From the NCBI RefSeq assembly GCF_011421595.1, contig NZ_WTLH01000016.1, positions 1 through 54,773 of the forward strand: a DNA stretch of 54,773 nucleotides. The letters are read 5' to 3'. The position numbers were made by a program, and so were the translations under genes. Within the stretch, counting starts at the first letter, position 1. Each line of letters starts with the position of its first letter. This stretch comes from Streptomyces sp. YIM 98790. Lineage in GTDB: Bacteria > Actinomycetota > Actinomycetes > Streptomycetales > Streptomycetaceae. A model generated the notes under the pieces. It was not told where the DNA came from and made no database searches. It saw only the letters and a list, made by a program, of their open reading frames with translations. This document shows, piece by piece, positions 1,896 through 26,196 of this stretch.

Positions 1896-3062
1896 TCAGG
1901 ATCGGGTGGCGGGGTCGAGCCAGGTGTCGAAGACGGCGGGCAGCCGTCGCCAGGCGTCCGGGCCGGCGGCGTGCTCCTCGGGAGTCAGCAGGCAGGAGTC
2001 CAGCAGGGCGGCCAGGCCGCCGCGGTCCAGGCCGGGACCGGTGAAGACCAGGTGCTGGCCGCGGTCGCCGTGCACCGGGTCCCAGTCCAGGGCGGCGGCG
2101 ATCCGCCGCTCCGGCGGGACGAGGTCCCAGGCGCCTTCCGGGAGCGCCGCCAGCCAGGGGCCGGCGCTCTCCACGCACAGCGCGCCCCCGGCGGCGTCCC
2201 AGGACAGCAGGACGTCGGGGCGGTCGGCCAGCCAGAACCGGCCCCGGCTGCGCACGGCCGCGCAGGCGATCTCCTCCAGGGCCCGGTGCAGCCGTTCGGG
2301 GTGGAAGGGGCGGCCGGCCCGCCACACCAGGGTGGCCACGCCCGCCTCCTCGGCGGGCTGCGGCAGCCGCGCGCAGGCCGGATGCTGCGCGGCGGCCGCC
2401 GCCTCCGGATCGAAGCCGGCGAAGGCCAGCCCGGTCAGCGCGGCGGAGTCGGCGGTGACCTGACGCGCGGTCGGGTGCAGCTGCCACAGCAGCGCGAGAT
2501 CCTCCGGCCCGGCGGGCTCGCCGCCCTCGGCGACGGCCAGCACCGGCGGGTACTCCAGCTGGCGGGCGAAGGTGTCGGCCACCACCCGGTGGTCGCCGGG
2601 AGCCACCGCCAGCCCGGCCGCCGCCAGATCGTCACCGTTGGCCAGGCACGGCAGCACCAGCGCCGGGTCGACGGCGGTGACCACACCGCTCAGCCGCACC
2701 GCCTCGCCGCACCGGCCGGCGATCAGCTCGGCGATGCCGCGCGGCTCCACCGACTCCCACAGCTCGACCACCGCCAGGCCGTACCGCCCGGCCGCGGACA
2801 GGCTCCGGAGCAGTCCGGGCAGGTCCTCGCGGAGCGCGCAGCAGCCGCAGTCCTCCACCGGCGGCAGCACGGCGGACTCCACCTCCCCCACCGCGTCGCC
2901 GAGGACGCGGCGGACCGGGCCGCCCTCCGCGGCCCGTGACAGGTCGTGGTGCACCGCCAGCGAGCCGGGCACGGTGCGCAGCAGGTGCCCGACGGCCGCG
3001 GCGCGGGCCTCGGCGTGCATGCCGGCGACCAGCACCACGGGCAGCGCGGGGCGCCCGGTCAC
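1896..3062 (-). CDS. COG0523/CobW-family zinc metallochaperone-like protein with degenerate P-loop
   Basis: A 388-residue member of the COG0523 (CobW, YciC, ZNG1) family. It has the metal-binding CxCC signature ([10 protein letters not shown], Cys72, Cys74, Cys75) and a C-terminal CobW_C domain ([11 protein letters not shown] and LLTPEE near the end). These proteins are G3E GTPases that deliver zinc or act in zinc homeostasis. The N-terminal Walker A region, where family members have GxxGxGKT, reads [20 protein letters not shown]: the GKT lysine is missing, so GTP hydrolysis is doubtful. The GTG start at 3062 overlaps the rpmE2 stop by 4 bp (GTGA), which implies translational coupling. It sits in the Zur-type island and is probably derepressed at low zinc. 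Confidence 0.85.
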
Positions 3063-3340
3063 CGGGCCGCCTCCCCGCCGCCGTCCCTGCCGCCGTCCCT
3101 GCCGCCGTAGCGCTGCCGGAACCGCTCCACCCGGCCGGCGGTGTCCAGCACCCGGGCCCGGCCGGTGTAGAAGGGGTGGCTCGCGGAGGAGATCTCCACA
3201 TCGACGAGCGGATAGGTGTTGCCGTCCTCCCACTCGATGGTCCGGTCGCTGGTGGCGGTGGAGCGGGTGAGGAAGGCGAATCCGGCGGCGCGGTCGCGGA
3301 AGACGACCGGGCCGTACGGCGGATGGATACCTGGCTTCAT
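3059..3340 (-). CDS. rpmE2: 50S ribosomal protein L31 type B, zinc-free
   Basis: A 93-residue L31 of the B type. It begins [16 protein letters not shown] and contains [23 protein letters not shown], the conserved L31 C-terminal block. The CxxC pair of the zinc-binding A type is absent. Type B L31 replaces the zinc form in ribosomes under zinc limitation and frees stored zinc. The tail is Gly/Arg-rich ([10 protein letters not shown]). It lies 66 bp downstream of rpmG and overlaps the COG0523 gene by 4 bp. Confidence 0.95.
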
Positions 3341-3406
3341 GACGTCGTGGTCCTTGCTCTGGGTCCGGGGCTGCGGGGCGGCGGGGCTGCGGGGCGGCCG
3401 GAGGGG

Positions 3407-3571
3407 TCAGCGCTCTTCGCGGAAGTCGACATGACGCCGCACCACCGGGTCGTACTTGCGCAGCACCATGCGGTCGGGGTCGTTACGGCGGTTCTTGCGG
3501 GTGACGTAGGTGTAGCCGGTGCCCGCGGTGGAGCGGAGCTTGATGACCGGGCGGAGTTCACTGCGTGCCAT
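3407..3571 (-). CDS. rpmG: 50S ribosomal protein L33, zinc-free paralogue
   Basis: A 54-residue protein beginning [20 protein letters not shown] with the typical [16 protein letters not shown] segment of L33. The two CxxC motifs of zinc-binding L33 are replaced and no cysteine is present. It is the first gene of the leftward zinc-sparing unit. The ATG lies seven bases after a TATGCT -10 element, so the mRNA is probably leaderless. The Zur-like box immediately precedes that element. Confidence 0.93.
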
Positions 3572-3578
3572 GCGAGGT

Positions 3579-3584
3579 AGCATA
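3579..3584 (-). promoter_or_regulatory. -10 element of rpmG, likely leaderless transcript
   Basis: TATGCT on the minus strand ends seven bases before the A of the rpmG ATG, putting the expected transcription start at or within one base of the start codon. No Shine-Dalgarno can fit. The Zur-like box directly abuts it on the upstream side, so bound repressor would cover the spacer and -35 region. Confidence 0.6.
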
Positions 3585-3599
3585 CGACAACGATTTTCA
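3585..3599. promoter_or_regulatory. Zur-like operator in the divergent rpmG/rpmB promoter region
   Basis: The sequence CGACAACGATTTTCA (reverse complement TGAAAATCGTTGTCG) matches most positions of the actinobacterial Zur box, an AT-rich TGAAAATnATTTTCA-type palindrome, and is the only AT-rich island in the 89-bp intergenic region. All genes diverging from it encode zinc-free ribosomal proteins or a zinc chaperone. This matches the known Zur regulons of Streptomyces and Mycobacterium. Confidence 0.75.
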
Positions 3600-3660
3600 T
3601 TAGCGTGAGGCTCCCGCGCTTCGCGGCGGCCGCGCAGACGTTCCCGGAGGTAACGCCACC

Positions 3661-3897
3661 TTGTCCGCCCGCTGCCAGCTGACCGGCACCCAGCCGGGCT
3701 TCGGCAACCGCATCTCGCACTCCCACCGGCGCACCCGGCGCCGGTTCGACCCCAACATCCAGCGCAAGCGCTACTGGCTGCCCAGCGAGAACCGCTGGAT
3801 CCGCCTCACCCTCAGCGCCCGCGGCATCAAGACCGTGGACGTCATCGGCATCGAGGCCGCCGTCGCCCGCATCCGCGCCCGCGGGGAGAAGATCTGA
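3661..3897 (+). CDS. rpmB: 50S ribosomal protein L28, zinc-free paralogue
   Basis: A 78-residue L28: [20 protein letters not shown], then [16 protein letters not shown] and [21 protein letters not shown], all conserved in L28. Only one cysteine is present, so the four-cysteine zinc site of the C-plus form is lost. The start is TTG at 3661, supported by GGAGGT at 3646-3651. The stop overlaps the rpsN ATG (TGATG), so the two are translationally coupled. It is transcribed away from the shared Zur-like box. Confidence 0.93.
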
Positions 3898-4202
3898 TGG
3901 CCAAGAAGAGCAAGATCGCCAAGAACGAGCAGCGCCGCGCGATCGTCGCCCGCTACGCCGCCCGCCGCGCCGAACTGAAGGAGATCATCCGCCGCCCGGA
4001 CACCCCGCCCGAGGCACGCGAGGCCGCACAGCGCGAACTGCGCCGCCAGCCGCGCGACGCCAGCGCCACCCGGCTGCGCAACCGGGACAGCACCGACGGC
4101 CGCCCCCGCGGCCACCTGCGCAAGTTCGGTCTCTCCCGGGTGAGCTTCCGCCACCAGGCCCACGCCGGCCACCTGCCGGGCGTCACCAAGTCCTCCTGGT
4201 GA
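3897..4202 (+). CDS. rpsN: 30S ribosomal protein S14, zinc-free paralogue
   Basis: A 101-residue long-form S14 beginning [21 protein letters not shown] and ending with the conserved [29 protein letters not shown] block. The zinc-binding form is about 61 residues with CxxC pairs; this form has no cysteine. It is the second gene of the rightward Zur-type pair, one base overlapping rpmB, and is followed by a GC-rich hairpin. Confidence 0.95.
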
Positions 4203-7961: not shown

Positions 7962-7997
7962 CGGCGGGCTCAGCCGGCGGGCTCAGCCGGCGGGTCT
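7962..7997. repeat. 13-bp tandem duplication at the end of the spermidine-synthase-like gene
   Basis: Two perfect copies of CGGCGGGCTCAGC (7962-7974, 7975-7987) and a partial third. The stop codon (TCA on the plus strand, 7983-7985) lies in the second copy, and the first copy would supply an identical stop if the second were lost. The core GGCTCAGC recurs in the repeat at 19619. Confidence 0.75.
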
Positions 7998-8702
7998 GCG
8001 GGAGACGTACACGGTGTTGGCCGCGGTGCCGCCGTGCACGGGGTTGGGGAAGCGCACCACGTGCGCCTCGACGTCGGTGAACACCTGGGCGAGAACGCCG
8101 CGGAAGGAGTCCCGGGGCGGGTCGTCGGACCACAGGGCGAAGACTCCGCCCGGCCGCAGGTGCCCCGACAGGGCTTGCAGGCCCGCCTCGGTGTAGAACC
8201 CGGCGTTGTCCGGGCGCAGCAGGTGGTCCGGGGAGTGGTCGATGTCCAGCAGCACCGCGTCGAACTGCCGCCGCGGCCGGTGCGGGTCGAATCCGTCACC
8301 GGCGGCCATGGCGAAGAAGTCGCCGTGCACCAGGCGGCAGCGGGGGTCGCCGGTCAGCCGCCCGCCGAGCGGCACCAGTTCCCGCCGGTGCCAGGAGATC
8401 ACCTGCTCCAGGGCCTCCACCACCAGCAGCGCACGGACCCGGCTGTCCTGGAGGGCCGTCACCGCGGTGTGGCCCAGCCCCAGTCCGCCGACCACGACCT
8501 CGGGGGCGGGGCTCGCCGATGCCGCCAGACCGAGCGTGGCCAGGGCCTCCTCCCCGGCCGTGAACAGGTCGGACATCAGGAACTCGTCGCCGAGTTTCAC
8601 CTCGTGGATCTGCCTGCCGGAGACCGGCTCGATACGGCGGCGCAGGCTGATGTCCCCCATCGGGGTGCGCTGCCAGTCCAGTTCCGCGAATCGCACGCCC
8701 AT
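7983..8702 (-). CDS. Spermidine-synthase-like class I SAM-dependent transferase
   Basis: 239 residues of the polyamine aminopropyltransferase/SpeE-like fold. The nucleotide-binding loop is VVVGGLGLGHTA, followed by ALLVVEALEQVISWH (acidic residue binding the ribose) and FDAVLLDIDHSPDHLL at the active-site strand. Short SpeE-like proteins of this kind are common in Streptomyces and their substrate is often unknown; no speD is nearby. The ATG at 8702 has GAGGACGG upstream. It is 173 bp downstream of the formyltransferase gene on the same strand, so it may belong to the diaminopropionate cluster or have its own promoter. The spacer holds CCGGTC repeats. Confidence 0.75.
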   Translation of the reverse strand: MGVRFAELDWQRTPMGDISLRRRIEPVSGRQIHEVKLGDEFLMSDLFTAGEEALATLGLAASASPAPEVVVGGLGLGHTAVTALQDSRVRALLVVEALEQVISWHRRELVPLGGRLTGDPRCRLVHGDFFAMAAGDGFDPHRPRRQFDAVLLDIDHSPDHLLRPDNAGFYTEAGLQALSGHLRPGGVFALWSDDPPRDSFRGVLAQVFTDVEAHVVRFPNPVHGGTAANTVYVSRRPAG

Positions 8703-8875
8703 GGCAAACCGTCCTCGTCCGTCTGTCGTCTGTCCCCGGTCCCGGTCCCGGTCCCGGCCCCGGCCCCCGCCCGGTCCGGTCCGGTCCGGCCGCGTCGGCG
8801 GCTGCTCGTCACGGCCACGACGGGAACCGCGAGGGGAGGCCACTCCTATCACACCGCGGCCGGCCCGGGCCGTGG

Positions 8876-9667
8876 TCAGGGGGTTCGGGGGCGCCGGGGG
8901 CGGAGGCGGGTCCGGGTGCGGCGCAGCCAGTGGATCATGTCGTGGGAGGGACCGCGGTCGCGTGTCCGGTAGGTCCTGCCGACGGAGGCGGGCTGGGGTG
9001 TGGCCGGGAGTTCGGTCCCCTCCTCCAGCCGCTGCAGATGGGCGAGCAGCCGGTGGATGGCGAGCCGCTCGGCGCGGCAGTACAGCTGCTCTGCCGTCTC
9101 CGTTCCCGTCATGGGCGGCCGGACGGTTTCGATGACGGGCCCGGCGTCGACCCCGGTGGTGACGTGGTGGATCGTCGACCCGACGCGGTCGGGGCGGCCG
9201 TGGTGGAGCGCGAAGAAGAAGCAGTGGTTTCCGCGGTAGTACGGGAGCAGGCCGCCGTGCACGTTGACCATGCGCGGGCCGGCCGCTCTGATGATCCGGG
9301 CCTTCAGGACCGAGCATCCGATGATCACGGTCACATCGGGCCGGGCCAGTCGCAGCGCGGCCTCGGCCTCGGGGGCGTTCGCCGACGGCACGTGCAGGCG
9401 CAGGGTGCGGCCGTCGGGCGGGGGGAGGGGGTGCCCGGCGAAGTAGTTCCTGCGGTAGCGGTTCTTCCCGGTCAGGCGCCGGCGCCGCCGGTGGTAGACG
9501 CTGTAGGCCCAGTCCCGGTACTTCCGGCGGCGGCGCAGCGCCCGGATCTTCTCGCTCTCCGGCTCGACCACCACGAGCGGCACCGTGAACCGGGAGCGCA
9601 GCAGGGACTCCAGGTACCGGTGGTGGTGATCGTCGGAGTGGATGACGGCCACCCGGAGTCCGGGCAT
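8876..9667 (-). CDS. Formyltransferase-family enzyme of the diaminopropionate cluster
   Basis: 263 residues of the Fmt/GART formyltransferase fold. The catalytic Asn-x-His and Asp are all present: MVNVHGGLLPYYRG (Asn135, His137) and TGVDAGPVIE (Asp174), spaced as in methionyl-tRNA formyltransferase. The N-terminus is a Rossmann-like start (LRVAVIHSDDHHH) with an Arg-rich insertion (45-75). The Fmt C-terminal tRNA-binding domain is missing, so the acceptor is a small molecule. It would transfer a formyl group from 10-formyltetrahydrofolate to an amine. The ATG overlaps the SbnB-like stop by one base (TGATG), which is strong evidence of coupled expression. Diaminopropionate or a derivative is the obvious candidate substrate (inference). 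Confidence 0.8.
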   Translation of the reverse strand: MPGLRVAVIHSDDHHHRYLESLLRSRFTVPLVVVEPESEKIRALRRRRKYRDWAYSVYHRRRRRLTGKNRYRRNYFAGHPLPPPDGRTLRLHVPSANAPEAEAALRLARPDVTVIIGCSVLKARIIRAAGPRMVNVHGGLLPYYRGNHCFFFALHHGRPDRVGSTIHHVTTGVDAGPVIETVRPPMTGTETAEQLYCRAERLAIHRLLAHLQRLEEGTELPATPQPASVGRTYRTRDRGPSHDMIHWLRRTRTRLRPRRPRTP

Positions 9668-10767
9668 CAGCGGCTCCCTCCGCGGGCCGGCGGTCCCTGT
9701 TCCTCTTCCCGTTCCTCTTCCCCCGCTGTTCCCGGCCCCTGCGGGTGGTGGTGGCCGGGCCATCTGCGGGTCTCGCCGAAGAAGTCGGGGACGGTGACCG
9801 TGGTGCCCGCCTGCCGGGCCCGGCCGAGCACGTGGGCGCCGACCGCGATGTCCAGGACGCCCAGCCCGAAGGGGGAGAAGACCACCGGGCGGTCCCCCGC
9901 CGGGCGGACGCTGCCGTCCAGCACGCCGGCGAGGGTCCCGGTGACGAAGTCGCGCCTTCCGGTGCGCTGTTCCGCCAGGTGCGGGGAGGTACCGGCGGTC
10001 AGGCAGTGGTCGACGTCGTCCAGGATGTTGTCGGCCTGGAGGATCACCTCCGGCGCGAGATCCCGCAGGGAGATGTGCAGGACGAGCTGTCCGGGCTTGA
10101 AGGGGGCGTGCACATACGGGGTCGTGGCGGTGGTCGCGAACACCACGGTCTCGCACTCCAGGGCGCTGCCCGGGTCCGGGGCGAAGGAGGCCCGCTGTCC
10201 GTGGGCCGCCGCGAGGTGCGCCGTGAGGGCCCGGCCGGATGCCTCGTCGAGGTCGTGGACGACGAAGCGGTCCGGCAGGCAGTCCGCGGCCACCAGGTAG
10301 TCGCAGACGGCGCGGGCGATGACGCCGGCGCCGACCACGCCGATCCGGGTGTCCCGGTGGCCCCGGGGCCGCAGTGCGCGGGCCGCCACGGCCGCCGACG
10401 CACCGGTGCGCGCGGCGCTGATGCCGGCGGCCTCCAGGCAGGCGACCGGGTGGCCGGTCCCGTAGTCGTTGAGGATCAGGACGGCCGAGGCCCGGGGCAG
10501 GCCGGCGGCGGTGTTGGCCGGGAATCCGGAGACCCATTTGATCCCGGCGAGTGCGGCCTGCCCGCCGTCGCCGGTGAGGTGGGCCGGGAGGGCGATGATC
10601 CGCGCCTCCGGCTTCCCGGGGAAGCGCAGGAAGCAGCTCGGCGGGTTGACGGTCTCTCCCCTGCCGTGGGCGCGGTAGGTGTCCTCGACGAGCGCCAGGA
10701 TCTCCGGGCGCCCGGTGTCGAGGACGGAGCGGACCGCCGGGCCGGGAACGATCACGAAGTCAAACAC
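9667..10767 (-). CDS. sbnB: SbnB-like N-(carboxyethyl)-diaminopropionate dehydrogenase (ornithine cyclodeaminase family)
   Basis: 366 residues of the ornithine cyclodeaminase/mu-crystallin family, with AGIKWVSGFPAN (Lys77) and an NAD-binding RIGVVGAGVIAR near 141-152. Paired with an SbnA-like enzyme it fits SbnB, which oxidatively splits N-(1-amino-1-carboxyl-2-ethyl)-glutamate to L-2,3-diaminopropionate and 2-oxoglutarate. The GTG start overlaps the SbnA-like stop by 8 bp, and the stop overlaps the formyltransferase ATG. The last 35 residues are a charged low-complexity tail (Glu/Arg/Gly-rich) beyond the usual family end. No separate regulator is seen. Confidence 0.88.
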   Translation of the reverse strand: MFDFVIVPGPAVRSVLDTGRPEILALVEDTYRAHGRGETVNPPSCFLRFPGKPEARIIALPAHLTGDGGQAALAGIKWVSGFPANTAAGLPRASAVLILNDYGTGHPVACLEAAGISAARTGASAAVAARALRPRGHRDTRIGVVGAGVIARAVCDYLVAADCLPDRFVVHDLDEASGRALTAHLAAAHGQRASFAPDPGSALECETVVFATTATTPYVHAPFKPGQLVLHISLRDLAPEVILQADNILDDVDHCLTAGTSPHLAEQRTGRRDFVTGTLAGVLDGSVRPAGDRPVVFSPFGLGVLDIAVGAHVLGRARQAGTTVTVPDFFGETRRWPGHHHPQGPGTAGEEEREEEQGPPARGGSR

Positions 10768-11752
10768 GGCTCACATCCTTCGCCGCGGGAGCGGGCGTGC
10801 CGGCTGCGAGCAGGTGCGGCCATCTGCGGGCCACCCACTCGTCGTCGTAGATGGTGTCCAGGTAGTGCATGCCCAGGTCCGGGGAGATCGCGACCACCAC
10901 GCTGCCGTGCGGGATGCGCCGGGACTCGCGGCGCAGCGCGGCGAGGACGCTTCCGGTCGATCCGCCGGCGAGCAGCCCGCGCTCCTTCGCCAGGGCCCGG
11001 CATGCCTGCACCGTGTCGGCCTCGCTGACGACGACCACCTGGTCGGTCAGTGTCTCGTCGAGTATCTCCGGACGTCTGCTGGCGCCCATCCCGGGGACGC
11101 AGCGCCGTCCGGGAGGGCCGCCGAATATCACCGAGCCCTCGACGTCGACGGCGACGATCCGGGTCCGCGGGCTGTGCTGCCTGAGGTAGGAGGCGCAGCC
11201 CATGAGGGTTCCGGTGGTTCCCGCGGCGATGAAGAGTTCGTCGACGCGGTCGAACTGCTCGACGACGGCGCGGCCGGTGCGGGCCCGGTGCGCCTCCACA
11301 CCGGCGGGGTTGGCGTACTGGTTCAGCCAGTGCAGGGTGGGGTCGCGCAGCATCCGCAGCCGGATGTACTCGATGCGGGAGTTGAGGTATCCGCCGTTCC
11401 GGTCCCGGCGGCTGATGACGACGACCTCGGTTCCGAGCGCTTCCATCATCCGGATCGACTGCGCGTTGGTGTTGGGGTCGGTCACGCAGGTGAGGGGATA
11501 CCCCTTGGCCGCGCAGATGACGGACAGCGCGATGCCCAGATTTCCCGAAGTCGATTCGATGAGCCGGGTCCGCGGACGAATGCACCCGGCCTTCTCCGCC
11601 TCCTCGACGAGCGCCACCGCGGTTTTGATCTTGATCGAGCCCGCCGGATTGCATGCCTCGATCTTCAGGAAGCCGCTGCTGCCGGGAACGTATTCGTCTA
11701 TCCGGAGAAACACGTCCTCCACGACGAGGTCATGGGCTTCGTTCGCGATCAT
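10760..11752 (-). CDS. sbnA: SbnA-like PLP-dependent N-(carboxyethyl)-diaminopropionate synthase
   Basis: 330 residues of the cysteine synthase-like fold-type II PLP family. The PLP lysine lies in ACNPAGSIKIK (Lys41), the asparagine loop is ESTSGNLGIALS, and the phosphate-binding loop is AAGTTGTLMG. SbnA condenses O-phosphoserine with glutamate; with SbnB it forms the two-step route to L-2,3-diaminopropionate. The ATG at 11752 has a strong GAGGGAGG eight bases upstream. It is 76 bp after the ligase gene and overlaps sbnB by 8 bp. Confidence 0.9.
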   Translation of the reverse strand: MIANEAHDLVVEDVFLRIDEYVPGSSGFLKIEACNPAGSIKIKTAVALVEEAEKAGCIRPRTRLIESTSGNLGIALSVICAAKGYPLTCVTDPNTNAQSIRMMEALGTEVVVISRRDRNGGYLNSRIEYIRLRMLRDPTLHWLNQYANPAGVEAHRARTGRAVVEQFDRVDELFIAAGTTGTLMGCASYLRQHSPRTRIVAVDVEGSVIFGGPPGRRCVPGMGASRRPEILDETLTDQVVVVSEADTVQACRALAKERGLLAGGSTGSVLAALRRESRRIPHGSVVVAISPDLGMHYLDTIYDDEWVARRWPHLLAAGTPAPAAKDVSRV

Positions 11753-11828
11753 GTGACCGCCTCCCTCGGGATGTGGCGGGCGGGCCCGGCCGCCGCCCGT
11801 GCGGACGCCGCGCCCGGCATGCCCGGCC

Positions 11829-12995
11829 TCAGCCCAGATCGCCCGCGGGGGTCTGGGCCGCCAGCAGGTGCACGACGTCGGTGAGGCGTCCGCGGCGGCG
11901 GAAGGCGGCACGCTGCCGGTCGGCTCCGGTACCGGCCGCCCGCAGCCGCCGCAGGCCCGTGCCGGCCAGCCGGCGGTCGCCGGTCTCCTCCAGTGCCGGG
12001 CCGATGTGCCGCTCCAGGGCGTCGACGACCGCGCCGGTCTCCGTGACGCCTCCGGTGACGGGGTCCATGCACTGCCCGTGCAGTCCGTCGCGCGCCGCCC
12101 GCCAGCAGCCCGCCCGCAGCAGGTCCGGCGACAGGGGCGGACCGGGGTCGCCGCGGGCGACGGCGTGCAGGGCCGTCACGGCGAGGCCGCGGACCAGGGT
12201 GGCGAACAGCACGCTCTCCTCGGCGGTCATCGGCACGTCGGCGACCCGGACCTCAAGGGTGGGGTAGCGGGTGGAGGGCCGGATGTCCCAGAAGAGACTG
12301 CGCCGGTCCACCAGGGCGCCGCTGTCGGACAGCGCGTCCACCAGCCGGTCGTGGTCCTCCAGGGAGGGGAAGTACGGCGGCGGGCCCGAGACCGGCCAGC
12401 GGCCCCACAGCATCCGGCGCCAGCTCGCGTAGCCGGTGTCCCGTCCGGCGAAGTAGGGGGAATTGGCCATGAGCGCGCTCAGCACGGGAATCCAGGGGCG
12501 CAGATGGTTGCTCACCAGCACCGCGCGTTCCGGGTCCGGTATGCCGATGTGCACGTGGACGGCACAGATGAAATGCTCCGCCACCAGCCCCCGGTAGGTG
12601 TCCGACTGGGAGAGGTAGCGGGGAAGGCCGGTCACCCGCAGCGGGGCCGCGCCGTCGAGCGGTGCGGTGCCGCAGGCGATGGCGCTGGCCCCGGCGGCCC
12701 CGGCCGCGTCGGCGACGGATGCCCGCATCCGCCCGATCTGCCGCCGGAGTTCGGCGGCCTCGGTGCACGGCGGGGTCTGTGCCTCCACCTGGCACTGCCC
12801 CAGTTCGGTGGTGACCATGTCCCCCAGCGCCGCCTCGGCGTGGCGGACCGCATCGCCCGCGCCGGAGACAACGCGATGGCTCACCGGGTCCACCAGAAGG
12901 TACTCCTCCTCCACCCCCATGGTCATGCCCGCGTGGGTCGCATGTCCCGGCTCAAAGGCATCGCCCGTGGGCAACGCCATGACGTCACCGGTCAT
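11829..12995 (-). CDS. GCS2-family carboxylate-amine ligase (YbdK/EgtA-like)
   Basis: 388 residues of the glutamate-cysteine ligase family 2. The diagnostic MGVEEEYLLVDP opens the domain, followed by AVHVHIGIPD and TLEVRVADVPMTAEE, which belong to the ATP/Mg and amino-acid site. Members join a carboxylate to an amine with ATP (YbdK, EgtA, BshC-independent ligases). The start is ATG 12995; ATG 12980 is an alternative. It is the first gene of a leftward set with sbnA, sbnB and a formyltransferase. It could therefore couple glutamate or another acid to diaminopropionate (inference). YbdK-type proteins are also scattered in Streptomyces genomes with no known role, so the link to the cluster rests on position. 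Confidence 0.8.
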   Translation of the reverse strand: MTGDVMALPTGDAFEPGHATHAGMTMGVEEEYLLVDPVSHRVVSGAGDAVRHAEAALGDMVTTELGQCQVEAQTPPCTEAAELRRQIGRMRASVADAAGAAGASAIACGTAPLDGAAPLRVTGLPRYLSQSDTYRGLVAEHFICAVHVHIGIPDPERAVLVSNHLRPWIPVLSALMANSPYFAGRDTGYASWRRMLWGRWPVSGPPPYFPSLEDHDRLVDALSDSGALVDRRSLFWDIRPSTRYPTLEVRVADVPMTAEESVLFATLVRGLAVTALHAVARGDPGPPLSPDLLRAGCWRAARDGLHGQCMDPVTGGVTETGAVVDALERHIGPALEETGDRRLAGTGLRRLRAAGTGADRQRAAFRRRGRLTDVVHLLAAQTPAGDLG

Positions 12996-15558: not shown

Positions 15559-16734
15559 GTGACCGATCCGGAGCACGGCGTCCCGTACCTGGCCGACGAG
15601 CGGAGCGGCCGTGCCTACGAACTGGATCCGCTGCGGTGGCGGGGCGACGACGGGGCGCCGCTGACCGTTTCGCCGCTGGCCGCGCCCGCCCCGGAGGACC
15701 TCGCCACCGGCTCCGGGACCCCCGGCGGTCCCGCCGCCCGGGGCCTGTGGCGCTACCGGGCCGCGCTCCCGCTGCCCGCCGGCCGGCCCGCCGTGACGCT
15801 CGGCGAGGGCGGTACGCCGCTCGTCGAGCGGGAGTGGGAGGGCGGGCCCGTGCGGTTCAAGCTGGAGTGGGCCAACCCGACCGGCAGTTTCAAGGACCGG
15901 GGCAGCAGCGTGATGATCTCGGCGCTGGCGGCGCGCGGCGTCACCGAGGTCATCGAGGACAGCTCCGGCAACGGCGGCTCCTCGGTCGCCGCCTACTGCG
16001 CGGCGGCCGGGATACGGGCCCGCATCCTGGTCCCGGAGGGGACCTCACCGGCCAAGATCCTCCAGAGCCGGGCGTACGGCGCGGACATCCGTCCGGTCCC
16101 CGGCGGCCGGGACGCCACGGCGGCCGAGGCCCTGCGCCAGTCGGCCGCGACCTGTTACGCCGGGCACAACTGGCACCCGTTCTTCCTCCAGGGCACCAAG
16201 ACCCTCGCCTACGAGCTGTGGGAGGACCTGGGCTTCACCGCCCCGGACGCGGTGGTCACCGTGGCCGGTGCGGGCAGCATCGTGCTCGGCTGCGACCTCG
16301 GCTTCGGCGAGCTGCTGGCGGCCGGGCGGATCGCCCGGCGGCCCCGGCTGCTGGCCGCCCAGCCCGCCGCCTGCGCCCCCGTCCATGCCGCCTTCCATTC
16401 CGCCCCGGCGCCGGACTTCGGGCCGACGATCGCCGAGGGCGCGGCCATCCGGGAGCCGGTGCGGCTGCCGGAAGTGGTGGCGGCGGTCCGCCGCTCCGGC
16501 GGGGACATGGCGGCGATCGCCGAGGAGGACATCGTCGCCGCCGTCCGCGGCCTGGCCGCCCGGGGCCTGTACGCGGAGCCCACGAGCGCGGTGGCCGCCG
16601 CGGCGGTCCGCGTCTTCCGGGCCCGGGGCGCGATCCGGGACGGCGAGACCACAGTGGTGATACTCACCGGCTCCGCCCTCAAGACCCCGGCCGCCATGGA
16701 CCGCCTCATCTCCCCCTCCGGCACCACCACATGA
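15559..16734 (+). CDS. Threonine synthase-like PLP-dependent enzyme
   Basis: 391 residues of fold-type II PLP enzymes. The PLP lysine is in WANPTGSFKDRG (Lys112), the Asn/Gly loop is DSSGNGGSSVAAY, and VTVAGAGSIVLG replaces the usual Gly-rich phosphate loop. A C-terminal TGSALK completes the site. This is the threonine synthase/serine-threonine dehydratase pattern. It is a stand-alone gene and not beside hom or thrB, so a catabolic or secondary role is as likely as threonine synthesis. The GTG start at 15559 has GGAGGGAGAGGG directly upstream. Confidence 0.8.
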   Translation: MTDPEHGVPYLADERSGRAYELDPLRWRGDDGAPLTVSPLAAPAPEDLATGSGTPGGPAARGLWRYRAALPLPAGRPAVTLGEGGTPLVEREWEGGPVRFKLEWANPTGSFKDRGSSVMISALAARGVTEVIEDSSGNGGSSVAAYCAAAGIRARILVPEGTSPAKILQSRAYGADIRPVPGGRDATAAEALRQSAATCYAGHNWHPFFLQGTKTLAYELWEDLGFTAPDAVVTVAGAGSIVLGCDLGFGELLAAGRIARRPRLLAAQPAACAPVHAAFHSAPAPDFGPTIAEGAAIREPVRLPEVVAAVRRSGGDMAAIAEEDIVAAVRGLAARGLYAEPTSAVAAAAVRVFRARGAIRDGETTVVILTGSALKTPAAMDRLISPSGTTT

Positions 16735-19621: not shown

Positions 19622-19682
19622 TCAGCGGCTCACCGGCTCACCGGCTCAGCGGCTCAGCGGCTCAGCGGCTCAGCGGCTCAGC
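19619..19682. repeat. Eight tandem copies of GGCTCA(G/C)C
   Basis: Exact 8-bp periodicity over 64 bp. Two of eight copies differ by one base. The array begins in the foot of the terminator stem and ends inside the RHS stop codon (TCA 19678-19680). Each copy contains TCA, a minus-strand stop. Confidence 0.9.
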
Positions 19683-22600
19683 AGAACTTTCCGCCGCTGC
19701 AGCCGAAGCCCCACGCCAGGTGACGCAGGCCGTCGGAGATCTTCCGGCGCCACGGGCCCAGCAGCGGGTCCCGGGGATTGTGCGCGAAGTCCTGCGCCCC
19801 GGTGTAGATCCCCGCGGGGGAACCGGAGACCAGTTTCTTGAGAGCCTGCTCGTAGACGTTGCCGCGCATGATGCTTTCGAAGGTCTCCCTGGCCGCCTCG
19901 TGGTCCCCCACGGCGAGGTGTCCCAGCAGGTCGGCATAGCCCAGCGGACTCATGTCCTGGTGCACGCTGAGGAAGGGGACCTCCGGCTCCGGCCTCTCCG
20001 ACTCCTCCGGCTCCGGGTCACCGCCCACGGGCTCCGGCTGCCGGGTGAGCTCGGTGTAGCAGGCGTCGTAGTCGCCGCTCCGGAAGGAGCAGAGCCGGGC
20101 GAGGAAGTGCACCTCGTTCATCACGATCATCTCGTTCGCCATCACGCGGTTGACGTCGTCGATGGTGAGGCTGCGGTCGATCTCCATCTGGAGCCGGAAG
20201 TTGAACAGCGTGAGCTGGTCGTACTCCTCCTGCGTGAGTTCCCGGCCCAGGAACAGGTCCTTGTCCGACGCGGCGGGCCTGGTGTCACCGCCGGAGGTGC
20301 CCCGGCCGCCGCCGGCGGGCTTGGCCGAGGGGCCGTGCGGGAACCACGTGCCGCTGCTTCCGGTGTTGCCGGGCGTTCCCGGGTTGCCCTGGAAGTTGGT
20401 GCTGCCGCCGGACGAGCGCTTCGACGAGCCCGAGGAACCCCAGCCCCTGCACTGGGCGGCGTCCTCGGGCGGCAGCATGTTGCAGTCCAGCAGGCCCGAG
20501 GGGTCGGTGTAGGTGAGCGGGTTGTTGCGGGCGTAGCTGTAGCCCTGCATCTGGTCGGCGCTGGTCACGTCCAGTACCGGGTCGGGGCTGAGGAATCTGC
20601 CGGTCTGCGGGTCGTACTGCCGGGCCCCCACCTGCACCAGCCCGGTGCCGGGATCGTCGGTCTTGCCGAGGAAGCCCTTGTCGTCCACCCAGGTGCCGAT
20701 GGCCCCCTCGGTCCGCTCGCTGCCGAAGGGCATCGTGTACCGCTTGGCGAAGTCCTGGTTCAGCGCCTCGACCGCCAGGCTGGAGGTGCCGTACTGGTCA
20801 CCGGCCAGATAGTGCACCTTCTCCTGCCCGGTGTCGTTGGTGCGCACGGCCACGGTCCGGTCGTCGGCCGCGTAGTAGCGCTGGGCCCAGACCCGGCCGT
20901 CGGCCTCCAGGCGGAACTCGGTGCTGCCCGCGTACAGCACGCTCTCGCCGTCCGGATTGCGGCGGATCAGCAGCCCTCCGTCGGCGTCGTAGAGGTACTC
21001 CGTGGTGCCGGCCGTGTCCTCGGCGCGGGCCAGGCGGTTCTCGCTGTTCCAGCTGAGCTGCTGGTCCCCGGCCGGGCCGGGCCGGCCGGTGGTGTTGCCG
21101 GCGTCGTCGTAGCGGAACTCCTGGTCCGGCTCCCCGGCGCAGGTGCCGTCGGTGACCAGCCCGGTCAGCGCGTACGGCCGGGCCGGGTCGGTGTAGCAGT
21201 ACGCGGTGGTCTGCGTCCCGCCGGCGGTGCGCCGGGTTTCGCCGGTGCGGCTGCCGGAGGCGTTGTCGTAGCTGTAGCTGGTCCAGTGCGGGGCCGGGCC
21301 GCCGAGGTTCGAGGCCGAGCGGTTGCCGGTGGAGCAGTCGCCGGCGGCGGGCGTCCACACGTCCGTCAGCCGCCGCTGCCCGTCGTAGGAGAAGCACTGC
21401 AGGTCCGCCGCGGACGTCCCGCCGAGGTGGGTGGGGTCCTCGATGGACAGCACGTTCCCGGCGTCGTCATAGCGGTAGTTGAGGTCCTGGAGCATGTACG
21501 GGTGGGTCTGGTCGGTGACATGGCTGCGCAGCAGCCGGCCGGTTCCCTCCTCGTAGGTCTGGGTCAGGTAGGTCTTCTGGCGTTCCGGGCTGCTGGACAG
21601 GCCGAGGGTGAGCTGCTGGGGCCGGCCCTGCGGCGAGTAGTCGGCGTGCAGCAGGTAGCCGGCCGCGCCGGTGACCTTGGTGACCAGGCCCAGGGCGTTG
21701 CGTTCGTAGGAGACGGTCTCCTGCGGCAGTCCGCCGAGCGCGGGCTCGGTGACGCTGCCCAGGGTGCCGTCGATCCGGTAGGCGGCGGCGAGCGGGATGG
21801 TCTGCGGGGCGCCGGCGGCGACCAGCGGGTCGTCCGCGTCCAGCCGCATCTCCTCGCCGGTGACCCGGTAGAGGCTGTCGTAGGCGGTGATCTGGCGGGT
21901 GTAGGCGAGGCCGTCCGTGCCGCCGACGTAGCGGGTGGAGCTCTCCGGGTGTCCCTTGACCAGGCCGTCGTAGGTGTGGCCGGTCATCCGGGTGGCGTCG
22001 CTGACGGTGCCCGCCCAGGTGCCGGTGGGCCGCCCCAGGGCGTCGTAGCGGGTCAGGACGGTCTCGCCCCGGGCGTCGGTGCGGGAGGTCTCCAGGTCCA
22101 GGGCGTTGTACTGCTTGGTGAGCCGTCCGCTGGTGGGGTCGTCGATCTCCACGGTACGGCCGTACAGGTCGTAGCTGTGGGTCCGCACGGCCCCGCCGGG
22201 GTCGGTGAGGGTCAGCAGCCGGCCGTCCGGGGCGTACTCGAACCGTGTCGCCAGATGGCCGGAGCCGGCCGCGCCGCCCCAGTCGGGGTCCTCCGGGTCG
22301 GGGCCGTTGTAGCTGCGGCGCTCGACGGTGCGGCCGCGGACGTCCACCACGGTGCGGGCGGCGGTGCCGCCGGTCACGGCGCTGGTGGCGGTGGAGTCTC
22401 CGGTGTAGGAGGTCTCGGTGGTCCACCGCTCGGTGCCGTAGACCAGCAGGGTGTCGGCGACGGTCCGGCCGGCGCCGTCGAAGGTGATGTTGTGCTGGCG
22501 CGGCGCCTCGCCGTACTCGGCGCGGGCGTAGGTGCCCTTGGGTTCCGTGGCGGGGTCGAAGATGTCGGCGTAGGTCTGGAAGGCCCGGCCGGCGGAGTCG

Positions 22601-25600
22601 TAGCGGGTGTCGGTCAGCAGCCGGCCGCCCTGGGCGGCGGGGGCCTGGGTCTGCAGGGGCCGCAGCAGCGAGTCGTAGATCTCGTAGGTGGTCAGGTAGC
22701 TGGTGCCGTCGGCCTTGATCCGGGAGGTCGCGATGGAGGACTGGCCGGTGTTGCTGATGCGGTACTCGAAGGTGAGGTTGGCTCCGTAGCCGGCGGCCCG
22801 GTTGCGGTTGGGCAGCCAGACGGCGGTGATCCGGCCCAGTGCGTCGTGGGTGAGCTCGGTCTTCTTGAGGTTGGCGTCGTAGGAGCGCAGCGCCAGTGCG
22901 CGGCGCGGGTCGTAGAAGGTGCGCTCGATGTGGCCGAGCGGGTTGGTCACCGTGATCCTGGTGACCGGGCCACCGTCGGCGGGGGTGAAGGCCGTGGTGG
23001 TGGTGTTGCCCGCGGCGTCGGTGGCGGAGACCACGCGGCCCAGCGCGTCATGGGTGTTGGTCATGACGGTCTGCCAGCCGGTGGGGTGCCGTTCGCCGCT
23101 GCCGGCGGCGGCCGGGTAGCCGGTGGGGCGCCCGCTCCAGGTCACCTCGCCCTTGACGGGCTGCTGGCCGGGGGACCAGCCGGTGGCGTCGGGATTGTCG
23201 TAGACCGTGGCGGTGTCGTTGAGCACGTCCCCGCGCCGGCTGCTGTCGGCCGGCAGGTCCAGATCGGCCTCGCCGGCGGAGCAGGGCCGGGCCACGGTGC
23301 GTTCACGGGACGTGGTGGCGATGATGCCGAGCGCGTCGTTGCGGGCGTACCAGGTGCGGGTGCAGGTCTCGTCCCCGGAGACGCCGTCCTGGCCGAGGTC
23401 CTCCTGGAGCCGGGCCATGCCGTAGTCGTCGTAGGTGGTGCGCTGGGTGCGGGAACGCCAGGCGCCGGTGGCGGTGAGCAGGGTGTGGTCGGTGGTCTTC
23501 GCGATCCGGACGTAGCGGGCCTTCGCATCGCGGGCGTCGGGCACGCTCTGGGTGGCGGTGGTCCGCGACCACGGCTCGTGGACCCGGGTGCTGAGGGCGG
23601 TGGCGCCGTCGTAGGTGATGCTCTGCCGGATCATGCCGGCGTACTGCTCGTGGTCGGTGACGGCGGGGATGGCCAGGCCGGGCAGGGAGACGGCGGTGAG
23701 CTGCCGGCTGCGGGCGGAGCCGTCGGCGAGGCGGTCGCCGTGCATGCCCTGGAAGAACACCGAGGTGGTTGCGGTGCGCACGGCCTGGAGGTTGCCGGTG
23801 CGGGTGGTCACCTTGCGGTAGCCGCGCCACTGGGACCAGGTGCGGTCGGATTCGGGCAGGAACGGGTCGTGGTTGTAGGCCCAGGCCGCGCCGGAGTATG
23901 CGTAGGCGTGCTCGACGGGCTCGTTGTGGCCGGTGGGGTCGGCCAGGACCACGGCCTCCACCCGGTACTTGTGGAACCAGTCGACGGAGGACTCCTGGGC
24001 GCCGTTGATGTGCCAGTACTGCGGGAAGCAGGAGCGGGTGTTGGTGTCCTCGGCGGCACCGGTGAGCTCGCTGCGGCGGCATTCCGGTTCCGAGTAGGTG
24101 ACGGTGATGATGCCGCCGGTCTCGGAGGTGACGGTGTTCAGCCGGGGGCGGTGCAGCGGCAGGATGTCGTCGACGGCATCCACCCGGTTGGGCCGCATGT
24201 GATAGGTGAACTCCACGGGGTTGACGGTGATGGCGGTGCCGGTGTGGCCGGTCCGCTGGAGGGAGGTGAGCACCAGGGTGTTGTCGGAGGTGTCACCGAT
24301 GTCCCCGGGGTCCAGGTAGTCCTGGGTGAGGTCCCAGGAGTCGACCTTGTCGTAGGCGGCGGAGGAGGCGTTCCAGCTGTAGGAGGCGATGCCGGTCAGC
24401 CGCTTGCGGGTGAAGAAGGCGGGGCTCTCGGCCAGGCAGTCGGTGTCGCCGCTGGTGCACAGGGCGTCGAAGGGGACGTCGGGCCAGTTGTCGGCGGTGT
24501 CCTCGTTGAGGTCGGTGCAGTCGGCGGCGGTGCAGCGCTCGGCGTAGAAGAAGCGGACCCGGGCGTCGGCGCTGCGGGTGAACAGGCTGTCCTTGCGCTG
24601 GCCGTAGTCGATGCGGGTCAGGTAGCCGCCGCGGGTGTAGGCGGTGTCGGCCGAGGACGCGCCGTTCTTCTTGTAGTGGTTGGTCTCCTTGGTGTACCAG
24701 TACGTCGCCACGTTGCCGTGGGTGTCCTCGACGTAGTCGAGGTTCCACCGCCATGCCTGGGTCACCGACCGGTCCGCGAAGGTGCCGCCCTGGCTGTAGC
24801 CGGGCTCCCCTGAGTCGTCGCCGAAGACCGGCACGGTCCACACCGAGTGGGTGCGCTCGGTGCCCGCGCCGGGCAGCTTGTGCAGGCCGAAGACGTACCT
24901 GGTGCCGTCCCCGGTGACGACGGTCCAGTGCTCGCCGTTGTCGTCCCCGTTGGCCGCGCCCGTGGAGCGGGTCACCGTCGAGGCATCGTCGTTCTCCAGC
25001 CGCCAGCGGCCGGTGGCGTCGTCCTTGACGAGCTGGTTGGCAAGGCCGTTCAGGACCAGCGTGGCGTTGTCGAACTTCCAGCACCGGTCGTGGACGTCGT
25101 CGTGACCGTCCTTGTCGCAGCTGGTGTAGGAGCGCTCGATGTAGGACTCGGTCAGGGAGAAGCCCTCGCCGACCTGGCTGCCCTGGTTGTTGGTGGTGGC
25201 GGTACGGCCGTCGACCGAGCCGGAGTCGTAGGACAGGGACAGGCCCGGAGACGGCCCGGCGGCCACCGGCGGCAGATCCAGGGCGTAGGACCAGGTGAAG
25301 GAGCCGGAGCTGCCTCCCGCCTCCCAGGTCGCGGACTCCGACAGCGGGGTGGCGGAGTAGTCGCCGCTTCCGGTGCCGCCCGACCCGGCGGAGGCCGCGG
25401 TCACGGCCAGCACGGCCGGCCCGGAGGCCGCCGCGGTGCGGGCGGCGCCGTCTGCGCCGGACGGCGATCCGCCGATCCGGGCGGTGACGGTCTGCCCCGC
25501 CCGGTCGTTGACCGAGTCCAGCGGGGTCTGCTCCCGGCACTCCGGCTTCTGCGGAGTGGTCAGGGCGCAGCCGGGCAGTTCCACCAGCCGCAGCCGGCCC

Positions 25601-26196
25601 GCCCAGTCACCGCCGATCGCCCCGGCGAACCCGCTGTAGTCCACGCTCACCTCGGTGCCGTCCGGCGCGGGCAGATCGGCGGTGAGCAGCACACCGGTCA
25701 CCCCGGCGGCACGGGCCGCCTCCTGGTCCAGCACCTCGACCTCCGGCCGGCTACCGGCCCGGCCGGCCCCGGCCGGCCGCTCCGCCGCCTTCGCGGAGCG
25801 GGGCACCCGCAGCTCCACCGGCAGCCCGCCGGGCCGCAGCGCGGCCGAGCCGTCACCGGACGGTGCCGCGGTGTCCTCGCCCGGCTCCGGCCAGCCGGCC
25901 GCGTCGCCGGAGCGGCGCGCCTCCTCCGCCTGGGCCTCGTTCTCGGCGCGCGAAGCGGCGACCAGTTCCCGGGCCTCCTCGGCGCCGAGCCCGGTCACCT
26001 CGCTCACCTCGCTCGCCCGGGGCTCGGGCAGTTCCGGGCGGCCCAGGCCGCCCGGGCCGTCCGTGGCGGCCCCGGCCATGGGCGCGAATCCCAGGGGCAT
26101 CAGCAGGGCGAGAAGCGCCGCCGTGATCAGTGTCCGGCGGGCGCGCCGCCCTGCCCGGTGCCCGCGCCGTGTGGAGGTGCCTGTACCTGTCCGCAT
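19678..26196 (-). CDS. Large secreted RHS/YD-repeat protein
   Basis: 2172 residues. A signal peptide (basic MRTGTGTSTRRGHRAGRRARR, then TLITAALLALLMPLGF and AGAA) directs export. A long beta-rich part with YD repeats follows, and the RHS core ends in YDPQTGRFLSPDP... GYSYARNNPLTYTDPSG near residue 1900. The remaining 271 residues are the variable tail: a Ser/Gly/Thr/Pro linker, an acidic helical section (TQEEYDQLTLFNF, DDVNRVMANE) and a Cys-containing end. I see no HINT, nuclease or deaminase motif. Downstream is only a terminator, so no immunity gene is adjacent. It follows a LamG/DNRLRE protein on the same strand, a pairing also seen in Streptomyces RHS loci. Confidence 0.85.
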   Translation of the reverse strand: MRTGTGTSTRRGHRAGRRARRTLITAALLALLMPLGFAPMAGAATDGPGGLGRPELPEPRASEVSEVTGLGAEEARELVAASRAENEAQAEEARRSGDAAGWPEPGEDTAAPSGDGSAALRPGGLPVELRVPRSAKAAERPAGAGRAGSRPEVEVLDQEAARAAGVTGVLLTADLPAPDGTEVSVDYSGFAGAIGGDWAGRLRLVELPGCALTTPQKPECREQTPLDSVNDRAGQTVTARIGGSPSGADGAARTAAASGPAVLAVTAASAGSGGTGSGDYSATPLSESATWEAGGSSGSFTWSYALDLPPVAAGPSPGLSLSYDSGSVDGRTATTNNQGSQVGEGFSLTESYIERSYTSCDKDGHDDVHDRCWKFDNATLVLNGLANQLVKDDATGRWRLENDDASTVTRSTGAANGDDNGEHWTVVTGDGTRYVFGLHKLPGAGTERTHSVWTVPVFGDDSGEPGYSQGGTFADRSVTQAWRWNLDYVEDTHGNVATYWYTKETNHYKKNGASSADTAYTRGGYLTRIDYGQRKDSLFTRSADARVRFFYAERCTAADCTDLNEDTADNWPDVPFDALCTSGDTDCLAESPAFFTRKRLTGIASYSWNASSAAYDKVDSWDLTQDYLDPGDIGDTSDNTLVLTSLQRTGHTGTAITVNPVEFTYHMRPNRVDAVDDILPLHRPRLNTVTSETGGIITVTYSEPECRRSELTGAAEDTNTRSCFPQYWHINGAQESSVDWFHKYRVEAVVLADPTGHNEPVEHAYAYSGAAWAYNHDPFLPESDRTWSQWRGYRKVTTRTGNLQAVRTATTSVFFQGMHGDRLADGSARSRQLTAVSLPGLAIPAVTDHEQYAGMIRQSITYDGATALSTRVHEPWSRTTATQSVPDARDAKARYVRIAKTTDHTLLTATGAWRSRTQRTTYDDYGMARLQEDLGQDGVSGDETCTRTWYARNDALGIIATTSRERTVARPCSAGEADLDLPADSSRRGDVLNDTATVYDNPDATGWSPGQQPVKGEVTWSGRPTGYPAAAGSGERHPTGWQTVMTNTHDALGRVVSATDAAGNTTTTAFTPADGGPVTRITVTNPLGHIERTFYDPRRALALRSYDANLKKTELTHDALGRITAVWLPNRNRAAGYGANLTFEYRISNTGQSSIATSRIKADGTSYLTTYEIYDSLLRPLQTQAPAAQGGRLLTDTRYDSAGRAFQTYADIFDPATEPKGTYARAEYGEAPRQHNITFDGAGRTVADTLLVYGTERWTTETSYTGDSTATSAVTGGTAARTVVDVRGRTVERRSYNGPDPEDPDWGGAAGSGHLATRFEYAPDGRLLTLTDPGGAVRTHSYDLYGRTVEIDDPTSGRLTKQYNALDLETSRTDARGETVLTRYDALGRPTGTWAGTVSDATRMTGHTYDGLVKGHPESSTRYVGGTDGLAYTRQITAYDSLYRVTGEEMRLDADDPLVAAGAPQTIPLAAAYRIDGTLGSVTEPALGGLPQETVSYERNALGLVTKVTGAAGYLLHADYSPQGRPQQLTLGLSSSPERQKTYLTQTYEEGTGRLLRSHVTDQTHPYMLQDLNYRYDDAGNVLSIEDPTHLGGTSAADLQCFSYDGQRRLTDVWTPAAGDCSTGNRSASNLGGPAPHWTSYSYDNASGSRTGETRRTAGGTQTTAYCYTDPARPYALTGLVTDGTCAGEPDQEFRYDDAGNTTGRPGPAGDQQLSWNSENRLARAEDTAGTTEYLYDADGGLLIRRNPDGESVLYAGSTEFRLEADGRVWAQRYYAADDRTVAVRTNDTGQEKVHYLAGDQYGTSSLAVEALNQDFAKRYTMPFGSERTEGAIGTWVDDKGFLGKTDDPGTGLVQVGARQYDPQTGRFLSPDPVLDVTSADQMQGYSYARNNPLTYTDPSGLLDCNMLPPEDAAQCRGWGSSGSSKRSSGGSTNFQGNPGTPGNTGSSGTWFPHGPSAKPAGGGRGTSGGDTRPAASDKDLFLGRELTQEEYDQLTLFNFRLQMEIDRSLTIDDVNRVMANEMIVMNEVHFLARLCSFRSGDYDACYTELTRQPEPVGGDPEPEESERPEPEVPFLSVHQDMSPLGYADLLGHLAVGDHEAARETFESIMRGNVYEQALKKLVSGSPAGIYTGAQDFAHNPRDPLLGPWRRKISDGLRHLAWGFGCSGGKFC

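What the first reader, a model, noticed from the sequence alone, without database searches (positions are those of the whole stretch)
7983..12995. Compact diaminopropionate-formyltransferase-ligase cluster: candidate undescribed small-molecule pathway
Seen: SbnA-like and SbnB-like genes overlap by 8 bp, SbnB-like and a formyltransferase overlap by 1 bp, and a GCS2-type carboxylate-amine ligase is 76 bp upstream on the same strand. A SpeE-like transferase follows 173 bp downstream. Known: SbnA/SbnB make L-2,3-diaminopropionate, normally fed to an NRPS or siderophore synthetase. Neither is present. Inference: this set could make diaminopropionate, formylate it (the formyltransferase has an intact Asn-His-Asp triad and no tRNA domain) and join it to an acid by the ligase, giving a small formylated or amide-linked product without NRPS. 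I know of no characterised pathway with this gene combination.
Basis: partly seen in the sequence, partly recalled or inferred. Interest (0 to 1): 0.82.

Follow-up and report, generated by a model that had tools for sequence, protein, structure and literature searches.

The report
Formyl-diaminopropionate small-molecule operon without NRPS
A Streptomyces-type genome carries overlapping sbnA, sbnB and formyltransferase genes, with an amino-acid ligase gene just upstream, that are predicted to make the unusual amino acid 2,3-diaminopropionate, likely cap it with a formyl group and possibly join it to another amino acid; relatives of the formyltransferase gene lie beside predicted diaminopropionate-making genes in several bacterial phyla, so it likely marks a little-described family of amino-acid-mimic pathways.

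Summary
SbnA and SbnB pass NCBI's curated cut-offs. The SpeE-like gene is probably unrelated (77% copy elsewhere in the genome; relatives in 8 of 60 other genus genomes without an FT match). FT is rare in the genus (2 of 391 other genomes at E<=1e-25). Of 28 FT neighbourhoods from elsewhere, 17 hold an SbnA-like PALP gene with argininosuccinate-lyase-like and ATP-grasp genes, 16 of these also a GHMP kinase; two close kin hold a true SbnB one gene away. Their SbnB is far from the window's in the tree, suggesting that one FT family met different diaminopropionate modules more than once. Nine of 28 do not fit. The ligase is the weakest member, supported by two analogues (GCS2 beside sbnAB in L096/L097, beside FT in L018); the full four-gene set was found nowhere else. 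Best reading: diaminopropionate, then N-formylation, then ligation, without NRPS. Product, formylated nitrogen and ligase substrate are inferred. My searches of an open-access library found no paper on the combination.

The parts
11829..12995 (-). GCS2/YbdK-type carboxylate-amine ligase, NF010041 subfamily; predicted to join an amino-acid carboxylate to the diaminopropionate unit
   Evidence: weakest member of the set
10760..11752 (-). SbnA: PLP enzyme predicted to condense O-phosphoserine with glutamate
   Evidence: TIGR03945 393.8 bits > cut-off; R126 and Y146 align with R132 and Y152 of S. aureus SbnA, the S185 position is Gly as in all 19 same-genus SbnA compared
9667..10767 (-). SbnB: NAD-dependent dehydrogenase predicted to release L-2,3-diaminopropionate
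   Evidence: TIGR03944 357.9 bits > cut-off; nearest PDB sequences 4m54 (its set includes 4mp3-4mpd) and CmnK 7cxs
8876..9667 (-). 10-formyl-THF-type N-formyltransferase of a subfamily often coded beside diaminopropionate-type modules
7983..8702 (-). SpeE-like protein; considered and judged probably NOT part of the set

Best explanation
The overlapping genes sbnA-sbnB-FT, with a GCS2-type ligase gene 76 bp upstream on the same strand, form a compact set that is predicted to make L-2,3-diaminopropionate, likely formylate one of its amines, and possibly ligate the product to an amino acid such as glutamate, with no NRPS gene seen among the window genes scanned. Steps: SbnA would join O-phosphoserine and glutamate; SbnB would oxidise the adduct to diaminopropionate plus 2-oxoglutarate (chemistry reported for S. 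aureus SbnA/SbnB, inferred here from family membership); FT would transfer formyl from 10-formyl-tetrahydrofolate, most likely to the beta-amine, giving 3-formamidoalanine, an isomer of asparagine with its amide turned round (inferred); GCS2 would add an aminoacyl group, perhaps gamma-glutamyl, to the alpha-amine (inferred, least certain). The likely role is an amino-acid antimetabolite or its dipeptide pro-form (inferred).
For: Gene overlaps of 8 and 1 bp on one strand. SbnA and SbnB above curated cut-offs. Of 28 FT neighbourhoods examined (23; L036-L038; L053, L054), 17 have a PALP relative of SbnA together with lyase and ATP-grasp genes, 16 of these also a GHMP kinase; in the three PALPs scanned the best NCBIfam match is SbnA (225-238 bits, below the cut-off). 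Two more, close kin of each other (L011, L054), have an SbnB above cut-off (343 and 371 bits) one gene before FT. In 16 of the 17 such loci measured FT overlaps or lies within 61 bp of the gene before it (L018: 124 bp). FT tree: window FT lies in a supported actinobacterial clade (100/99) that holds three kinase-type loci and the two SbnB loci. SbnB tree: window sbnB and the L011/L054 sbnB are far apart, which suggests independent pairings. GCS2 stands next to sbnA in L096/L097 and 54 bp after FT in L018. The FT model has the formyltransferase fold. SbnA/SbnB chemistry: PMC9485241, passages.
Against: The exact four-gene set was seen nowhere else. Nine of 28 FT neighbourhoods lack a clear diaminopropionate module (6 beside a DAO-type oxidase, 2 beside an NRPS, 1 partial), among them the only two other FT genes found in the genus, so the subfamily need not always act on diaminopropionate. 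Several of the 28 are near copies (L011/L054, L022/L023, L024/L025, L027/L028), so independent cases are fewer. The window FT's sister placement has modest support (93/68), and the far SbnB branch is a long one in a small tree, so replacement of one sbnB by another is as possible as two separate gains. GCS2 paralogues are common in the genus (34 of 61 genomes, its own included, at E<=1e-60), so its place could be chance; eight GCS2 contexts fetched from other genus genomes show no sbnA. No exporter or tRNA deacylase gene was recognised beside the window's set, and its genome has no PF04414 match. The seven nearest sbnB relatives sit in a different cluster without FT. In the 17 clusters the PALP, lyase and ATP-grasp could make something other than diaminopropionate. 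L015's PALP lacks the PLP lysine.
Confidence: 0.48

Rival explanations
1. SbnA, SbnB and FT form the real operon, giving formyl-diaminopropionate as end product or as a building block used elsewhere in the genome; the GCS2 ligase is a bystander YbdK paralogue.
For: GCS2 is separated by 76 bp while the other three overlap; GCS2 paralogues are frequent in the genus, and eight contexts of relatives (8 of the 21 other genomes) share no neighbour with the window but the ligase itself and, once, an L31 gene.
Against: Same strand and short gap; GCS2 next to sbnA in L096/L097 and next to FT in L018; the 17 PALP-type FT clusters all hold an amino-acid-ligase-like ATP-grasp; best GCS2 in 371 other genus genomes is 52% identical among the candidates scored (5 per genome), so it is no fixed core gene.
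Confidence: 0.27
2. The FT acts on a different amine (for example a peptide or an amino sugar), and its place after sbnAB is a recent rearrangement without a shared pathway.
For: The FT is rare (2 of 391 other genus genomes) and its family also occurs beside NRPS genes (L016, L019) and DAO-type oxidases (6 loci); sbnAB of the nearest clade belong to another five-gene cluster; Foldseek's top hits include sugar formyltransferases.
Against: 1 bp stop-start overlap; FT coded beside diaminopropionate-type genes in 19 of 28 other neighbourhoods, including a distant SbnB lineage. No sugar genes recognised in the set.
Confidence: 0.16
3. A metal chelator (zincophore or siderophore) made under zinc control, since zinc-independent ribosomal protein genes with a Zur-like site lie about 7 kb away.
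For: Zur-like site at 3585-3599 with L31B, L28, S14 and a CobW-type GTPase; diaminopropionate occurs in staphyloferrin B (PMC3179956, passages).
Against: No Zur-like site near the operon in whole-window scans with up to 3 mismatches; the only other hit is at 34312 (the consensus is recalled); no siderophore synthetase or NRPS among scanned window proteins; formylation without a hydroxylase gives no hydroxamate.
Confidence: 0.05

Closest known systems
SbnA/SbnB of staphyloferrin B (with VioB/VioK, CmnB/CmnK and DdaA/DdaB as homologous pairs)
   Same: Same two-enzyme diaminopropionate module, above curated cut-offs; closest solved sequences SbnA 5d84-5d87 and CmnB 8if7, SbnB set 4m54 and CmnK 7cxs; VioB/VioK and DdaA/DdaB named as homologues in PMC3179956 (passages).
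   Different: No NIS synthetase, decarboxylase or NRPS recognised; followed directly by a formyltransferase.
Dapdiamide and bacilysin pathways (DdaF and BacD ATP-grasp ligases)
   Same: Works-like analogy: a modified amino acid joined by a stand-alone ligase. The ATP-grasp of one related FT cluster (L014) weakly matches the DdaF and BacD models (50 and 57 bits against cut-offs 840 and 850).
   Different: The window has a GCS2-type ligase instead; a formyl group is predicted instead of the fumaramoyl or epoxy groups (recalled); not a member.
Kinase-PALP-lyase route to 2,3-diaminobutyrate in uridyl peptide antibiotics (recalled; only a reference title on mureidomycin A was seen)
   Same: Same inferred logic as the 17 FT clusters: phospho-amino acid, PALP with aspartate, fumarate release.
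EgtA/YbdK GCS2 ligases
   Same: GCS2 family; YbdK-type 1r8g and 1tt4 are the only PDB sequences matched at E<=0.001.
   Different: EgtA model only 32.4 bits (cut-off 370.8); substrate unknown.

Membership tests
SbnA (2,3-diaminopropionate biosynthesis, PLP) | Score above TIGR03945 curated cut-off | tested here: met
   393.8 bits vs 349.95
SbnA (2,3-diaminopropionate biosynthesis, PLP) | PLP lysine, SGN loop and phosphoserine-contact residues conserved | tested here: inconclusive
   K in GSIKIK, TSGN, R126 and Y146 conserved, but the S185 position is Gly; Gly also in all 19 same-genus SbnA compared; the roles of these residues are recalled
SbnB | Score above TIGR03944 curated cut-off | tested here: met
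   357.9 vs 326.9
SbnB | Makes diaminopropionate with NAD | not testable with these tools
   needs an assay
10-formyl-THF N-formyltransferase (PF00551) | Domain match, N-x-H...D residues and fold | tested here: met
Methionyl-tRNA formyltransferase or PurN equivalog | Score above curated cut-off | tested here: not met
   Fmt 37.8 vs 201.5; PurN 45.5 vs 150.1
GCS2/YbdK carboxylate-amine ligase | Score above TIGR02050 and NF010041 cut-offs | tested here: met
   258.6 vs 176.4; 403.7 vs 332
EgtA | Score above TIGR03444 cut-off | tested here: not met
   32.4 vs 370.8
Staphyloferrin B-type NIS siderophore cluster | IucA/IucC-type synthetases nearby | tested here: not met
   none among the window proteins scanned (some window genes were not scanned)
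Polyamine aminopropyltransferase (SpeE-like gene) | Score above curated cut-off | tested here: not met
   20.1 vs 260

The most novel reading that the evidence does not exclude
The formyltransferase marks an undescribed, widespread class of NRPS-free pathways (kinase-PALP-lyase-ATP-grasp-FT clusters in six phyla by record titles) that make formyl-diaminopropionate, a reversed-amide isomer of asparagine, and deliver it as a ligase-built dipeptide antimetabolite; many producers carry an archaeal-type D-aminoacyl-tRNA deacylase as self-protection, and this window shows the class rebuilt with a different diaminopropionate module and a different ligase.
Probability: 0.35. Interest if true: 0.82.

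Novelty: new variant of a known kind. Interest (0 to 1): 0.6.

Why it matters
If right, a simple genetic marker (this formyltransferase subfamily) would open a family of small, NRPS-free amino-acid-mimic pathways; because the predicted core product has the formula of asparagine (C4H8N2O3), mass-only metabolomics could easily misread it. It would also be a clear case of one tailoring enzyme meeting different routes to the same precursor.

Tried and rejected
SpeE-like gene as a fifth member: rejected. Its genome has a 77% paralogue on another contig; relatives of 61% or more (two of them matched in two pieces) occur in 8 of 60 other genus genomes, none of which had an FT match at E<=1e-10. Zur control of the operon: no site near it. 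GCS2 as a conserved neighbour of the SpoIIE-type gene upstream: no such neighbour in 8 contexts of other GCS2 genes (8 of the 21 other genomes listed were fetched, one cut by a contig end). A threonine-synthase-like gene at 15559-16734 as counterpart of the second PALP in L018: only 27% identical and on the other strand beyond the SpoIIE-type gene, dropped. D-aminoacyl-tRNA deacylase in the window's genome: no match. NRPS in the window: none among those scanned. Promoter and terminator scan: nothing found. Sequence and fold searches for the FT's substrate: formyltransferases of many substrates, not decisive.

Selection effects and limits: the 20 SbnB neighbourhoods were 18 of the best hits plus L096 and L097, which were chosen because a GCS2 match lay near, so 2 of 20 is not a rate. 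L033 (cut FT) was left out of the FT tree and of the 28. In the tree, 13 database proteins of unknown context were added (one identical to L010's FT). Genome sets overlap, and only the best first-look candidates of each genome were scored (5 to 31 per genome). FT search of the class: 2 of 394 genomes including its own; of the family of Pilimelia: 4 of 300. Gene starts in other loci come from my own simple caller. Pfam or NCBIfam names were obtained for one to three members of each neighbour type; the other members were assigned by BLAST.
Full report

How rare. FT relatives at E<=1e-25 occur in 3 of 392 genus genomes including its own; the two others are about 40% identical and lie beside a DAO-type oxidase, with no sbnA or sbnB in the 18 kb fetched. 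In contrast sbnB relatives at E<=1e-40 occur in 113 of 199 genus genomes and GCS2 relatives at E<=1e-60 in 34 of 61, the own genome counted each time. No GCS2 scored in 371 other genus genomes exceeds 52% identity, although relatives of up to 64% exist in the protein database.

What FT travels with. A genome scan gave 24 named loci. Clustering of neighbouring proteins, a recount with separate references and family scans of representatives show a recurrent set: GHMP kinase, SbnA-like PALP, ATP-grasp ligase (LAL_C2 domain in the L014 member), argininosuccinate-lyase-like protein (fused to the ATP-grasp in L018, L021 and L024-L030), FT, in some loci an exporter (LysE, EamA or MFS), and in 12 of the 23 loci a relative of the PF04414 D-aminoacyl-tRNA deacylase. 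Over 28 neighbourhoods (the 23 without L033; L036-L038; L053, L054) the tally is: 17 PALP plus lyase and ATP-grasp (16 of them with the kinase; L018 lacks it), 2 SbnB (L011, L054, whose neighbours are 95% identical), 6 DAO oxidase, 2 NRPS (with asparaginase genes; L016, L019), 1 partial (L012: short lyase piece and deacylase). Record titles of the 17 name actinomycetes, Blastocatellia, Ktedonobacteraceae, Planctomycetaceae, an uncultured Verrucomicrobia bacterium and several proteobacteria (phylum assignment partly recalled; L053 is unnamed, from the family of Pilimelia). The three PALPs scanned match the SbnA model best but below cut-off. I infer that kinase-PALP-lyase is an aspartate-based route to diaminopropionate (or diaminobutyrate), as recalled for uridyl peptides; this is not tested.

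More than one pairing. In the FT tree (42 rows) the window FT lies in a 16-row actinobacterial clade (100/99) with three kinase-type loci (L010, L013, L053) and the two SbnB loci; its sister group is the one holding L011 and L054, with modest support (93/68). In the SbnB tree (24 rows) the window sbnB groups with seven same-genus sequences (96/99), all seven of whose loci carry a different five-gene cluster, SbnA-SbnB-PF13454-PF01053-BenE (named from L079), without FT; L011/L054 SbnB are separated by a very long branch (2.1 changes per site). So FTs of one clade stand beside sbnB of two distant lineages and beside the kinase-PALP-lyase module. Two gains, or one pairing with later exchange of sbnB, both fit. 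This recurrence is the main argument that the FT works on diaminopropionate or a derivative. The 333-residue protein between SbnB and FT in L011/L054 resembles the ATP-grasp proteins only weakly (27-38% over parts, best E about 1e-8) and has no Pfam (L011) or NCBIfam (L054) match.

The ligase. GCS2 of the same NCBIfam subfamily follows sbnA in L096 and L097 (TauD-SbnB-SbnA-GCS2 beside NRPS genes; family scans on L096), and another GCS2 lies 54 bp after FT in L018. Eight contexts of other GCS2 genes show no sbnA. The ligase is therefore plausible but unproven.

Mechanism. SbnA/SbnB chemistry is taken from PMC9485241 (passages), its role in staphyloferrin B from PMC3179956 (passages). The PLP lysine and two of three phosphoserine-contact residues (roles recalled) are conserved; the third, S185 of SbnA, is Gly here and in all 19 same-genus SbnA compared. 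Beta-formylation is preferred because the product would mimic asparagine; the asparaginase genes beside FT in L016/L019 (domains shown for L016) and the tRNA deacylases fit an amino-acid mimic but do not prove it. The stated confidence was lowered slightly (0.50 to 0.48) after the recount showed that the two SbnB loci are near copies.

Literature. Searches of the open library for formyltransferase with diaminopropionate, SbnA/SbnB, ATP-grasp or argininosuccinate lyase, and for formyl-diaminopropionate itself, returned no paper or papers whose listings are off the subject (two; one, on prediction software). Broader searches gave papers on SbnA/SbnB, uridyl peptides and other clusters, seen as listings only, apart from the two read in passages. 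Subscription papers are mostly not covered.

Noticed in passing
window 1896-4202: Zur-like site (3585-3599) with a CobW/MRF-type GTPase, L31 type B, L28 and S14: a probable zinc-starvation ribosomal protein set.
   Followed up: partly
L012, L014, L017, L018, L020, L021, L024-L028, L031: Relatives of the PF04414 D-aminoacyl-tRNA deacylase sit in 12 of 23 bacterial FT loci (domain confirmed in L014 and L018); among 14 control genomes the family was found only in the four archaea. Possibly self-protection against a mischarged amino acid.
   Followed up: partly
L078-L084: Seven genus genomes share a five-gene cluster SbnA-SbnB-PF13454 oxidoreductase-Cys/Met PLP enzyme-BenE transporter; product unknown to me.
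   Followed up: no
L096, L097: TauD-SbnB-SbnA-GCS2 genes beside small NRPS genes, apparently another diaminopropionate plus GCS2 pathway.
   Followed up: partly
L016:6484-12729, L019:6460-12715: NRPS-like genes followed by an FT relative and an asparaginase gene.
   Followed up: no
L011, L054: B12-binding radical SAM, GNAT, SbnB, a weakly ATP-grasp-like protein, FT and MFS exporter in a row; Couchioplanes (L011) has an SbnA-like gene below cut-off about 58 kb away on the same contig.
   Followed up: partly
L015:6467-7312: PALP without the PLP lysine in an otherwise complete FT cluster.
   Followed up: no
window 19678-26100: 2140-residue protein with RHS repeats; sugar-degradation and nickel-dependent hydrogenase genes further right.
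   Followed up: no
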